Shown in pieces: positions 1 through 64,000 of a DNA stretch of 64,000 nt. Every line of letters starts with the position of its first letter. The first letter of the stretch is position 1. The stretch spans positions 1,488,001 to 1,552,000 of the forward strand of contig NZ_CP083439.1 of the NCBI RefSeq assembly GCF_021919125.1. The letters run 5' to 3'. The notes beneath the pieces are model-generated. The model searched no databases. It saw only the letters and a list, made by a program, of their open reading frames with translations, and was not told the origin of the DNA. A program made the position numbers and the translations under genes. Source of the DNA: Clavibacter sp. A6099 (GTDB lineage: Bacteria > Actinomycetota > Actinomycetes > Actinomycetales > Microbacteriaceae).

Positions 1-1009
1 CAGCGTCGTCATCATCGACACCGCGGGACGCCTCGGCGTCGACCAGGAGCTGATGAAGCAGGCCGCGGACATCCGCAAGGCCACCGATCCCGACGAGGTC
101 CTCTTCGTCATCGACGCCATGATCGGCCAGGACGCGGTCGCGACCGCGAAGGCGTTCCAGGACGGCGTCGACTTCACGGGCGTCGTGCTCTCCAAGCTCG
201 ACGGCGACGCGCGCGGAGGAGCGGCCCTCTCGGTCGCCTCCGTCACCGGCCGCCCGATCATGTTCGCGTCCACGGGCGAGGGCCTCGACGACTTCGAGCC
301 CTTCCACCCCGACCGCATGGCGAGCCGCATCCTCGACCTCGGCGACATCCTCACCCTCATCGAGCAGGCCCAGCAGGCCTTCGACGAGGAGGAGGCGATG
401 GAGGTCGCCCAGAAGCTCGCGAGCGACACCTTCACGCTCGACGACTTCCTCAAGCAGATGCAGCAGCTGCGCGGCAAGGGCTCCCTCAAGAAGATGATGG
501 GCATGCTCCCCGGCATGGGTGCCATGAAGGAGCAGCTGGAGAACTTCGACGAGAAGGAGATCGTCCGCACCGAGGCGATCATCCAGTCGATGACGAAGGC
601 CGAGCGCCAGAACCCGAAGCTGCTCAATGGCTCGCGCCGCCTCCGCATCGCCCGCGGATCCGGCATGACCGTCACCGACGTCAACGGACTCGTGCAGCGC
701 TTCGAGCAGGCCTCGAAGATGATGCGCACGGTCGCCCGCGGCGGCATGCCGCAGATCCCCGGCATGGGCCCGATGCCAGGCGCGCACTCGGGCCGCAAGC
801 CCGTGCAGCAGAAGAAGAAGGGCTCGAAGTCGGGCAACCCGGCCAAGCGCGCGCAGGAGAACGCCGCGCTCGCCTCGGGCCAGCGCATCGGCGGGCCCAC
901 GGCTCCCGCGGGATCCGGCTTCGGCCTGGCCGGTGCGGCGAAGGGCGGCGCGGACGGCGCCCCGAGCGAGGAGGAGCTCGCCTCGCTGCAGAAGTTCCTC
1001 GGGCGCTGA
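1..1009 (+). CDS. ffh: Signal recognition particle protein Ffh (5' truncated by window)
   Basis: SRP54-type GTPase that binds signal sequences together with 4.5S RNA and delivers ribosomes to the FtsY receptor at the membrane. The window opens inside the G domain: base 2 starts a codon and the first residues include the G3 motif DTAGRL. Next come SKLDGDARGG (G4/G5 region) and the methionine-rich M domain (KKMMGMLPGMGAMKEQ, then the RNA-binding SRRLRIARGSG). About 335 C-terminal residues are visible; the N and early G domains lie upstream of the window. The C-terminal tail is Lys/Gly/Ala-rich, as in other actinobacteria. A strong hairpin follows the stop. Confidence 0.97.
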   Translation, partial: SVVIIDTAGRLGVDQELMKQAADIRKATDPDEVLFVIDAMIGQDAVATAKAFQDGVDFTGVVLSKLDGDARGGAALSVASVTGRPIMFASTGEGLDDFEPFHPDRMASRILDLGDILTLIEQAQQAFDEEEAMEVAQKLASDTFTLDDFLKQMQQLRGKGSLKKMMGMLPGMGAMKEQLENFDEKEIVRTEAIIQSMTKAERQNPKLLNGSRRLRIARGSGMTVTDVNGLVQRFEQASKMMRTVARGGMPQIPGMGPMPGAHSGRKPVQQKKKGSKSGNPAKRAQENAALASGQRIGGPTAPAGSGFGLAGAAKGGADGAPSEEELASLQKFLGR

Positions 1010-1036
1010 CCCGAGCACGACCCGCACGTGCGTCCG

Positions 1037-1070
1037 CGACGGCGTCCTCCCCACCGGGAGGGCGCCGTCG
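1037..1070 (+). terminator. Terminator hairpin after ffh
   Basis: Arms CGACGGCGTCCTCCC (1037-1051) and GGGAGGGCGCCGTCG (1056-1070) pair over 15 bp with one G-U, around the loop CACC. There is no U-run, which is normal for high-GC actinobacterial terminators. Confidence 0.75.
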
Positions 1071-1161
1071 TCGCATGCTCGACGCGCGCCCTCCGACGTG
1101 CCAGCGTGGGGGCAGCACCGCGGCGCCCCGTCGCGATCGATCCCCGCGTCAGGAGCCTCCC

Positions 1162-1539
1162 GTGTTCGCACCCGCCACCGCGTTCAGCGGCTTCAGCGTC
1201 GACGACGTCCCCGCCGCGCTCGCCTTCTACCGCGGCACCCTCGGCCTCGAGGTCGAGGAGGTGCCCGAGATGGGCATGCTGCGGCTCGTGCTCCCCGGAT
1301 CCGCCGCACGCGTCCTCGTCTACCCGAAGCCGGGCCACGTGCCCGCGACGTTCACGGTCCTCAACCTCCAGGTCGACGACGTCGAGCAGGCGGTCGTCGA
1401 GCTGAACGCGCGCGGCGTCGACACGAGGACCTTCGCGGGGATGCCCACGGACGCGCGCGGGATCATGCGCGGCAACGGGCCGGACATCGCCTGGTTCCGC
1501 GACCCGGCCGGCAACATCCTGTCCGTCGTCGCGGCGTGA
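1162..1539 (+). CDS. VOC/glyoxalase-family protein
   Basis: A 125-residue single-domain vicinal-oxygen-chelate protein of unknown substrate. The N-terminal strand-helix unit (FSVDDVPAALAFYRGTLG) and the C-terminal AWFRDPAGNILSVV are typical of the glyoxalase/bleomycin-resistance/dioxygenase superfamily. The frame is open from 1075, but the GTG at 1162 is preferred: AGGAG lies at 1151-1155 and the domain begins right there. It stands alone between ffh and a convergent protease gene. The specific reaction (glyoxalase, resistance or other) cannot be decided from sequence. Confidence 0.8.
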   Translation: MFAPATAFSGFSVDDVPAALAFYRGTLGLEVEEVPEMGMLRLVLPGSAARVLVYPKPGHVPATFTVLNLQVDDVEQAVVELNARGVDTRTFAGMPTDARGIMRGNGPDIAWFRDPAGNILSVVAA

Positions 1540-1549
1540 GGAGGACGAG

Positions 1550-62308: not shown

Positions 62309-62314
62309 AGGCTA
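62309..62314 (-). promoter_or_regulatory. TAGCCT box before the CrtI-like gene
   Basis: TAGCCT overlaps the SDR TAG stop and ends 6 nt before ATG 62302; it may give a separate leaderless transcript in addition to read-through. Confidence 0.35.
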
Positions 62315-63310
62315 TCGGCGACGCAGCGCGGCGGCCCCGGCGACGACGCCGGAGAGGAGGGCACCCGCGCCGATCGCGACGGTCTTCGCGCGGTTGCGGA
62401 TGATCCAGACCTGGGGGCTCGTCATGCGCGCGCGGTCGCTGAAGATGCCGCGCGCGCCCTGGTCGCCCGCGGTCGGCGTGTAGAGGTTCGTCGTCAGCAT
62501 GGGCTGCGTCTTGTCCTCGGCCTGCTGGCCGCTGTAGCCGGTCTTCGCGAGGTAGCCGTCGAGCCAGTTCGCGACGAAGCGGTTCCCGAGCACGGTCATC
62601 ACGGTCGGCTCGCCGACCCAGTTGCGGCGCTTCGGCTTCTCGGCGACGGCGGCGATCGCCTGCGCGCCCACCTCGGGCTCGAAGATCGGCGGCACGGGCT
62701 GCGGGTGGTGCGGCAGCTGCGACTTGACCCAGTTGAACTGGATCGTGTTGAGCGCCGGCATGTCGACCGTGGAGATGCGCACCTTGCTCTCGTTGTGGAT
62801 CAGCTCGGTCGTCACCGACTCGGTGAAGCCCTGCACGGCGTGCTTGGCGGCGCAGTACGCGGCCTGGAGCGGGATCCCGCGGTGCGCGAGCGCGGAGCCG
62901 ACCTGGATCACGTGGCCCCGGTCGCGCGGCACCATGCGGCTGAGCGCGGCGCGCGTGCCGTTGACGAAGCCGAAGTAGTTGACGGCCGTGGCGCGCTCGA
63001 AGTCGGCCGGATCCGTGGTGAGGAACTCACCGAAGACGCCGACCATGGCGTCGTTGACCCACAGGTCGATGGGACCGAGCTCGTCCTCGACGCGGTCGGC
63101 AGCGGCCTCGACGGCGAGGCGGTCGGCGACGTCGGTGGAGATGCCGAGGCCGCGGCGGCCGCGCGCCTCGATGTCCGCGACCGCGCCCGCGAGCCCGTCC
63201 TCGCCGCGCGCGAGGACGGCGACGTCCCAGCCACGGTCGGCGAGCTCCCGTACGGTCGCGCGGCCCAGTCCGGCCGATCCTCCGGTGACGACGGCGATGC
63301 CTCGAGTCAT
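62312..63310 (-). CDS. Short-chain dehydrogenase/reductase with C-terminal anchor
   Basis: A 332-residue classical SDR. NAD(P)-binding TGGSAGLGRATVRELA, the NDAM segment replacing the usual NNAG, Ser in VIQVGSALAHRGI, and the catalytic YCAAK. The C terminus (about 305-328, KTVAIGAGALLSGVVAGAAAL) is a single hydrophobic segment with a basic end, suggesting membrane attachment, as in SDRs acting on lipids. ATG 63310 has AAGGAG 5 nt upstream. It is the first gene of the pair with the CrtI-like oxidoreductase. Confidence 0.88.
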   Translation of the reverse strand: MTRGIAVVTGGSAGLGRATVRELADRGWDVAVLARGEDGLAGAVADIEARGRRGLGISTDVADRLAVEAAADRVEDELGPIDLWVNDAMVGVFGEFLTTDPADFERATAVNYFGFVNGTRAALSRMVPRDRGHVIQVGSALAHRGIPLQAAYCAAKHAVQGFTESVTTELIHNESKVRISTVDMPALNTIQFNWVKSQLPHHPQPVPPIFEPEVGAQAIAAVAEKPKRRNWVGEPTVMTVLGNRFVANWLDGYLAKTGYSGQQAEDKTQPMLTTNLYTPTAGDQGARGIFSDRARMTSPQVWIIRNRAKTVAIGAGALLSGVVAGAAALRRR

Positions 63311-63355
63311 GTGGCTCCTTCGATGGTTGGTGCACGAAACGTGCTCTTCCACCGT

Positions 63356-63396
63356 AGGACCGGCGCACCCCCGCGGAGGCCTCCCGGCCCGGTCCT
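63356..63396 (-). terminator. Hairpin after the second FadD-like gene
   Basis: AGGACCGG (63356-63363) pairs with CCGGTCCT (63389-63396); the loop holds another palindrome, GGAGGCCTCC. Confidence 0.5.
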
Positions 63397-63408
63397 GCCA
63401 GGCGGCGG

Positions 63409-64000
63409 TCAGCCTTCGCGCTGCAGCTCCTCGCGCACCTGGCGGCGGAGCACCTTGCCGATGAGCGACGTGGGCAGCGCGTCCACCTGGATCACGCGAC
63501 GGGGGACCTTGTAGGCCGTGAGGTGGGCGCGGCAGTACGCGCGGATCGCGGCCTCGTCGAGCGTCGATCCCGGATCCAGGACGACCGCTGCCGTGACGTC
63601 CTCGCCGCCGTCCGCCGACGGGAGGCCGACCACGGCGACGCCCTGCACGCCCGGCGCACCGCGCACGACGTCCTCGACCTCGCTGGGGGAGACGTTGAAG
63701 CCGCCCGTGATGATGAGCTCCTTCATCCGGTCGACGATCGTCGTGAAGCCGTCGGCGTCGACGCGCACGATGTCGCCCGTCCGGAACCAGCCGCCGTCGA
63801 GGAGCGCGGCGCGCGTCTCGTCGGGGCGGCGCCAGTAGCCCTGGAACACCTGGGGACCGCGGATGAGCAGCTCGCCCTCCTCGCCGGGTGCGCGGTCGAC
63901 GGTGGGATCCTCGGGATCCACGACGCGCACCTGGGTGCTCGGGAACGGGACGCCCACGGTGCCGGGCCGCCGCGACGGGCCGATGGGGTTGCCGAGCGCG
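63409..64000 (-). CDS. Second FadD-like acyl-CoA synthetase (C-terminal part, cut by window end)
   Basis: Only the last ~197 residues are in the window. They align closely with the end of the 58550 FadD-like protein: PNTEV-type start (PFPSTQVRVVDPEDPTVDRA), GPQVFQGYWRRPDETRAA, GWFRTGDIVRVDADGFTTIV, ELIITGGFNVSPSEVEDVV, YKVPRRVIQVDALPTSLIGK and the Lys-bearing GKVLRRQVREEL. The N-terminal ATP motifs lie beyond 64000. It is most likely a tandem paralogue sharing the cluster. Confidence 0.88.
   Translation of the reverse strand, partial: ALGNPIGPSRRPGTVGVPFPSTQVRVVDPEDPTVDRAPGEEGELLIRGPQVFQGYWRRPDETRAALLDGGWFRTGDIVRVDADGFTTIVDRMKELIITGGFNVSPSEVEDVVRGAPGVQGVAVVGLPSADGGEDVTAAVVLDPGSTLDEAAIRAYCRAHLTAYKVPRRVIQVDALPTSLIGKVLRRQVREELQREG

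What the first reader, a model, noticed from the sequence alone, without database searches (positions are those of the whole stretch)
1..64000. Strong excess of the palindrome GGATCC, in all three codon phases
Reading the whole window I counted about 110 GGATCC sites (hand count, a few may be missed). With ~72% G+C a simple base-composition estimate gives about 20. The word appears as Gly-Ser GGA TCC (656, ffh), Asp-Pro GAT CC (about 5671, trmD) and xGG ATC C (about 21128, cdsA), even though GGA and GAT are otherwise rare codons here. It is sparse in strongly expressed genes (rpsB, tsf, frr) and denser after ~31 kb (about one per 430 bp against one per 930 bp before). That pattern points to selection or mutation acting on the DNA word itself: a methylation site, a nucleoid-protein site, an uptake- or architecture-type signal. 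I know of no described role for it in this group.
Basis: partly seen in the sequence, partly recalled or inferred. Interest (0 to 1): 0.7.

Follow-up and report, generated by a model that had tools for sequence, protein, structure and literature searches.

The report
Actively maintained GGATCC word in Clavibacter
Clavibacter chromosomes carry several times more copies of the six-letter DNA word GGATCC than their genes require, evolution still favours it, and the same word is also abundant in a few relatives, so something in these cells probably reads it; what that is remains unknown.

Summary
The window (Clavibacter) has 113 GGATCC sites; the genome has 6455, 1.94/kb. Against synonymous codon shuffling the excess is 4.6-fold (823 vs 178.7), in all three codon phases; three other GATC palindromes show none, and coding and non-coding densities are equal. 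All 18 Clavibacter genomes searched have 1.2-2.0/kb; 2 of 292 other family genomes and 0 of 295 other phylum genomes exceed 1.0/kb. GGATCC is also the top palindrome, 3.3-4.6-fold, in three genomes of other genera. In a 15-genome alignment synonymous gains are doubled (108 vs 53.0) and losses reduced (275 vs 357.8), most strongly on internal branches (12 vs 42.6), as expected if losses are weakly harmful. Most gains are transversions, so T:G repair is not the cause. It resembles cyanobacterial 'highly iterated palindromes', but no methylase family searched tracks it: the only one in all 18 Clavibacter is shared with relatives of low density and was not found in one genome that has the excess. 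Best reading: weak selection for a chromosome-wide recognition word; reader unidentified.

The parts
1..64000 (.). Set of 113 GGATCC sites across the window (first at 656, last at 63914)
   Evidence: One search lists all 113 start positions; one search gives the expectations.
656..661 (.). GGATCC in frame as GGA TCC (Gly-Ser), phase 0 example
   Evidence: position; within the called gene 53-1009 (+). Phase 0 in 480 kb: 329 observed vs 28.3 shuffled.
5671..5676 (.). GGATCC as xxG GAT CCx, phase 2 example
   Evidence: position; within the called gene 5438-6124 (+). Phase 2: 249 vs 30.3.
21129..21134. GGATCC as xGG ATC Cxx, phase 1 example, in cdsA (CTP_transf_1)
   Evidence: position; called gene 20336-21376 (+). 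Phase 1: 245 vs 120.2.
1..31000 (.). Sparser part: 34 sites
   Evidence: in genes 29 vs 8.0 by shuffle, 3.6-fold.
31001..64000 (.). Denser part: 79 sites
   Evidence: in genes 75 vs 13.7 by shuffle, 5.5-fold.

Best explanation
GGATCC in Clavibacter behaves as a highly iterated palindrome: a chromosome-wide DNA word that arises and persists because substitutions creating it are fixed about twice as often, and substitutions destroying it about 0.77 times as often, as matched substitutions elsewhere. Shown: the excess, its independence of coding, its genus-wide spread, its occurrence in three genomes of other genera, the two-sided bias, and the scarcity of losses on deeper branches. Inferred: the bias is weak selection (gain/loss ratio near e to the 1 overall) because the word is a recognition site for a protein that works along the whole chromosome, binding, modifying or processing duplex DNA. 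The identity of that protein is not known.
For: Codon shuffle 4.6-fold, all phases, three other GATC palindromes none, coding 1.954/kb vs non-coding 1.971/kb. Genus-wide, 18 of 18 at 1.2-2.0/kb. Same word on top in G194 4.2x, G181 4.6x (G+C 59%), G021 3.3x; not in Leifsonia 1.06, Agromyces 0.93, Cryobacterium 0.60, Frigoribacterium 0.46, nor in G137, a congener of G194, 1.15. Gains 108 vs 53.0 and losses 275 vs 357.8 after control for codon, neighbour base, gene and branch; log ratio 0.98 against at most 0.26 for the 29 other palindromes with enough data. Highest gain ratio of 914 hexamers (2.04, next 1.57). Losses are 0.28 of expectation on internal branches (12 vs 42.6), the lowest of 239 hexamers (mean 0.98, sd 0.21), but 0.83 on terminal ones (263 vs 315.2), as for changes that are weakly harmful and later removed. 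86 of 108 gains are transversions.
Against: No reader protein is identified. Word-directed repair or conversion would also give a two-sided bias; the internal/terminal contrast rests on 12 internal losses and on inferred ancestral bases kept only at 0.9 posterior, which could push losses towards the tips, although the average word shows no such contrast. At the tips losses outnumber gains 263:94 (internal 12:14), so slow erosion in recent time is not excluded; the 29 other palindromes together give about 5683:4260 (my sum). The bias differs by position (centre 3.55/0.89, outer 1.46/0.66), which plain selection on the whole word does not predict. Gain bias is not lower near existing sites, so there is no sign of a saturable spacing function. 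By the two-sided ratio alone GGATCC is second of 759 hexamers, behind a word with small counts.
Confidence: 0.6

Rival explanations
1. Methylase-linked word, as Elhai proposed for cyanobacteria: a DNA methylase recognises GGATCC, and methylation-directed repair creates and protects the sites as a by-product.
For: [quoted passage not shown] alternates such as GGGATCCC are in section 2.3. A beta-class N6/N4 methylase (PF01555) is in 18 of 18 Clavibacter, beside a RecQ-like helicase gene in all 17 neighbourhoods that I fetched, the window genome's included.
Against: The same methylase, at 69-83% identity over its core and with a conserved target region, is in 18 of the 23 family genomes, 12 of which have under 0.6 sites per kb; no residue separates the high from the low genomes aligned (21 proteins); it was not found in G181, which has the excess (draft of 40 contigs). 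PF00145 is in 7 of 18 Clavibacter, PF02086 in 2 of 9 tested, PF02384 in 8 of 11 tested. No dip in synonymous substitution rate near sites.
Confidence: 0.22
2. Word-specific mutation or repair drive without methylation: an unknown mismatch or break-repair step favours strands that restore GGATCC, with no benefit to the cell.
For: Two-sided bias; excess in genes and spacers alike; high density in single species of other genera. One Clavibacter phage, CMP1, has 17 sites in 30 kb vs 7.1 (order 3).
Against: I know of no enzyme that restores a hexamer through all kinds of mismatch. A drive should act alike on internal and terminal branches, but losses are 0.28 and 0.83 of expectation. The second phage, CN1A, has 10 vs 9.7.
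Confidence: 0.22
3. Very-short-patch (Vsr-type) T:G repair at a cytosine methylase site.
For: Vsr matches in 11 of 18 Clavibacter genomes, two of them weak or broken.
Against: 86 of 108 gains are transversions; the four C-to-T (G-to-A) decay neighbours gave 0 gains, though only about 1.1 were expected. The window's own genome has no Vsr match.
Confidence: 0.02
4. Codon, amino-acid or dipeptide bias, or spread of a repeat that contains GGATCC.
For: GGATCC density varies with gene composition.
Against: Codon shuffle z 69, all phases, equal density in spacers; flanks without an extended consensus; gain/loss bias after codon control.
Confidence: 0.01

Closest known systems
HIP1 (GCGATCGC) and alternate HIPs of cyanobacteria (Elhai 2015, PMC4390886)
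   Same: G+C-rich palindrome with GATC core, at 500-2500 per Mb as given there for such words (here 1940 per Mb); one dominant word per genome; sporadic in some lineages; GGGATCCC, which contains GGATCC, is the HIP of two Synechococcus strains.
   Different: Actinobacteria; the word is a hexamer; the same word is on top in four genera; none of four methylase families searched tracks it; no sign of local repair protection.
Restriction-modification sites (BamHI type, GGATCC; specificity recalled)
   Same: The same hexamer.
   Different: Restriction predicts avoidance; here there is excess, and 30 kb of each of two Clavibacter phages do not avoid the word.
Chi and DNA uptake sequences (recalled)
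   Same: Short words repeated thousands of times per genome.
   Different: Those, as I recall them, are non-palindromic or carry extended flanks and strand bias; GGATCC has no extended consensus.

Membership tests
Highly iterated palindrome (HIP, sense of Elhai 2015) | Palindrome strongly over-represented, 500-2500 per Mb | tested here: met
   6455 in 3.326 Mb; 4.6x over codon shuffle.
Highly iterated palindrome (HIP, sense of Elhai 2015) | One dominant word, sporadic among relatives | tested here: met
   Top palindrome in Clavibacter, G194, G181, G021; 2 of 292 other family genomes above 1.0/kb.
Highly iterated palindrome (HIP, sense of Elhai 2015) | A methylase able to modify the word is present | tested here: inconclusive
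   Of four families searched only PF01555 is genus-wide; target unknown, present at low density and not found in one genome with the excess.
Highly iterated palindrome (HIP, sense of Elhai 2015) | Found in cyanobacteria (where the term was coined) | tested here: not met
   Clavibacter, by the named relatives.
Restriction-avoided site | Depleted in host or phage | tested here: not met
   Excess in host; phages 17 vs 7.1 and 10 vs 9.7 in 30 kb each.
Vsr-type repair product | Gains by C/T transition at a methylated cytosine | tested here: not met
   86 of 108 gains are transversions.
Methylation site | Base modification at GGATCC in the cell | not testable with these tools
   No raw long-read signal is held.

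The most novel reading that the evidence does not exclude
An actinobacterial chromosome-wide DNA word, reached apparently independently in at least four genera of one family, is kept by weak selection as the site of an undescribed, methylation-independent DNA-binding or repair protein.
Probability: 0.27. Interest if true: 0.8.

Novelty: new variant of a known kind. Interest (0 to 1): 0.63.

Why it matters
Why some genomes fill with one palindrome is a question that HIP1 has left open. A case outside cyanobacteria, with congeners that have and lack the excess, makes the question testable: compare gene content and modification between G194 and its congeners, or follow the word in populations. 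The methylase link drawn from cyanobacteria is not reproduced here with the families tested, which would narrow the models if confirmed.

Tried and rejected
Codon or amino-acid bias: rejected. Equal excess of all GATC words: rejected. Vsr repair: rejected. Cytosine-5, D12 and N6 methylase families as universal partners: not supported. Core PF01555 methylase: present at high and low density, no distinguishing residue. Local repair protection around sites: no rate dip. Saturable spacing: sites in the own-genome sample are depleted within 100 bases of each other (123 vs about 182), likewise in five other Clavibacter regions (53 vs about 75), but not in G194 (52 vs about 49), and gains are not rarer near existing sites (25 vs 8.0 within 60 bases), so I do not use it. 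Family-wide avoidance of GGATCC: a first hint from 5 Cryobacterium loci (0.27) became 0.60, rank 10 of 51 palindromes, with 31 loci; in Frigoribacterium it is the lowest of 32, but on 7 vs 15.3 sites; dropped. Origin-terminus trend: a low stretch at 1.28-1.94 Mb, but the correlation is not significant (p 0.18 for density, 0.055 for ratio), and the origin was not located. First gain/loss run with trinucleotide contexts (gains 157 vs 87.8, losses 465 vs 560.0) was replaced by the codon-context run, which also left out the G014 branch because it cannot be polarised. Stretches of G003 and G009 were fetched but not used in the alignment. Regular spacing: gaps have CV 1.14. One search was a pattern trial of no consequence.
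Full report
What it is. The window lies in a Clavibacter chromosome (the six nearest named loci are Clavibacter, 88-97% identical in the cdsA protein). It holds 113 GGATCC sites. The whole genome holds 6455 in 3.326 Mb, 1.94 per kb. No base composition can give more than 0.343 per kb at order 0 (G+C two thirds; arithmetic).

More than chance. In 464 kb of the same chromosome GGATCC occurs 905 times against 259.7 (order 2), 475.7 (order 3) and 672.4 (order 4), with the highest maximal-order z of the hexamers with enough expected copies, 22.1. 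Shuffling synonymous codons within genes, 480 kb with 421 kb coding, gives 178.7 (sd 9.4) against 823 observed. By phase: 329 vs 28.3, 245 vs 120.2, 249 vs 30.3. CGATCG, AGATCT and TGATCA are at 0.87, 0.99 and 0.86. Density in non-coding DNA (1.971/kb, 116 sites) equals that in genes (1.954/kb) (genes called by my own script). In a ranking of the 38 palindromes with enough copies GGATCC is at 4.5 and the next, CTGCAG, at 1.9 (whose label says 480 kb but which used 464 kb). The word therefore is favoured as DNA.

Who has it. All 18 Clavibacter genomes have 1.2 to 2.0 per kb. Of 299 family genomes in 85 genera, the 7 Clavibacter, G194 (1.84) and G181 (1.41) exceed 1.0; next are G021 (0.93) and G156 (0.86). 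The four congeners of G194 in that scan have 0.27-0.44 and the four of G181 0.10-0.35 (tallies read from its table, genome sizes rounded there). In 296 phylum genomes none but the window's own reaches 1.0; the highest other is G360, 0.90 (read likewise). Codon shuffles of 80-100 kb samples confirm the excess in G194 (202 vs 48.0), G181 (94 vs 20.4) and G021 (58 vs 17.7), each with GGATCC as the top palindrome, and more weakly in G156 (82 vs 38.5). G181 has 59% G+C, so high G+C is not needed. Planctomonas, on 21 kb, shows 10 vs 4.5. That these are separate origins is inferred from low congeners; I built no tree of genera.

Still favoured. I aligned 80 kb around the window and 20 kb elsewhere from 15 Clavibacter genomes, built a tree (midpoint root), inferred ancestral bases and counted synonymous and non-coding changes against rates for the same codon change and neighbour base, corrected for gene and branch. 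Gains 108 vs 53.0; losses 275 vs 357.8. The log ratio is 0.98; among the 29 other palindromes with enough data the highest is 0.26. Among 759 hexamers pooled with their complements GGATCC is second by this ratio, behind a word whose ratio rests on 9 losses. By gain ratio it is first of 914 (2.04; next 1.57). Gains come from GCATCC 23, GGCTCC 17, GGGTCC 16, CGATCC 15, GGAGCC 13, GGATCG 11, GGATGC 7, GGACCC 6; 86 of 108 are transversions.

Selection or drive. On internal branches losses are 12 vs 42.6 (0.28), the lowest of 239 hexamers (mean 0.98, sd 0.21; the next, CGGATC, overlaps it); on terminal branches 263 vs 315.2 (0.83). Gains are raised on both, 14 vs 6.3 and 94 vs 46.7. Losses that are common at the tips but rare deeper in the tree are what weakly harmful changes give, and gains and losses balance on internal branches (14 and 12). 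A pure mutational or repair drive should not differ between the two. The numbers are small and depend on the ancestral inference. Results that do not fit neatly: the bias is stronger at the two central positions (gain 3.55, loss 0.89) than at the outer four (1.46, 0.66), and losses exceed gains on each of the 14 terminal branches counted.

Methylases. Four methylase families were searched. PF01555 is in 18 of 18 Clavibacter. Its product resembles M.RsrI and CcrM and lies beside a RecQ-like helicase gene (below the curated cut-offs of its NCBIfam models) in the 17 Clavibacter neighbourhoods fetched (G002 was not fetched). It is also in 18 of 23 further family genomes, 12 of them with under 0.6 sites per kb, with no separating residue, and was not found in G181 or in the four other genomes of its genus searched. 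PF00145 is in 7 of 18, PF02086 in 2 of 9 tested, PF02384 in 8 of 11 tested. In G194 and G021 neither PF00145 nor PF02086 was found; G181 has two PF00145 genes. So a methylase partner is neither shown nor excluded; other families, and specificity, could not be tested.

Other tests. Substitution rate does not fall near sites. Two Clavibacter phages do not avoid GGATCC: CMP1 17 vs 7.1, CN1A 10 vs 9.7 (order 3), 30 kb each.

Known background. Elhai 2015 (PMC4390886; I read the outline, sections 2.3 and 2.5, the first part of 3.4, and passages) describes HIPs in cyanobacteria, among them GGGATCCC, and proposes repair directed by methylated GC. Its main text has no word beginning with Clavibacter, actinobacter or GGATCC. 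The 14 papers with 'iterated palindrom' (listing only) concern cyanobacteria as far as titles and abstracts show, with one (PMC3497702) whose listing does not say. A 2018 paper on selection for HIP1 is recalled and was not in the list. My searches for Clavibacter or actinobacteria with such a word showed nothing on it in what was listed; searches matched more papers than they listed. I read passages of one hit, PMC6329791, and nothing of the others.

Verdict. Real, word-level, genus-wide and under ongoing bias, most likely weak selection. It works like a HIP; membership is left open because the methylase feature is inconclusive and the group differs.

Noticed in passing
own genome sample, L119-L138 and window: GATATC is nearly absent relative to codon shuffle (1 vs 22.2), and TGTACA (6 vs 24.9) and GGGCCC (146 vs 287.6) are low.
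   Followed up: no
own genome 1.28-1.94 Mb (L127-L131): GGATCC density is lower here (19-31 per 20 kb) than in most other stretches; the trend with position is not significant.
   Followed up: partly
own genome sample: GGATCC sites are under-represented within 100 bases of one another (123 vs about 182); none of 11 other palindromes falls below about 0.9 there, and G194 does not show it.
   Followed up: partly
L099 9823-10971 (-): The genus-wide PF01555 methylase of Clavibacter carries a long variable low-complexity insert after its DPPF motif, shorter or absent in the relatives compared.
   Followed up: no
L263 626-1567 (-): In G181 a cytosine-5 methylase gene (PF00145) lies just upstream of what reads like mraZ and rsmH (names by eye).
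   Followed up: no
L258 493-2568: G181 also has an Eco47II-type restriction endonuclease beside a cytosine methylase with a MerR-like start.
   Followed up: partly
L262 1-30000: Clavibacter phage CN1A has no CGATCG in 30 kb although other GATC hexamers are present.
   Followed up: no
own genome sample: GGATGC on one strand is clustered up to 800 bases (about 2-fold), probably because it is tied to gene direction.
   Followed up: no
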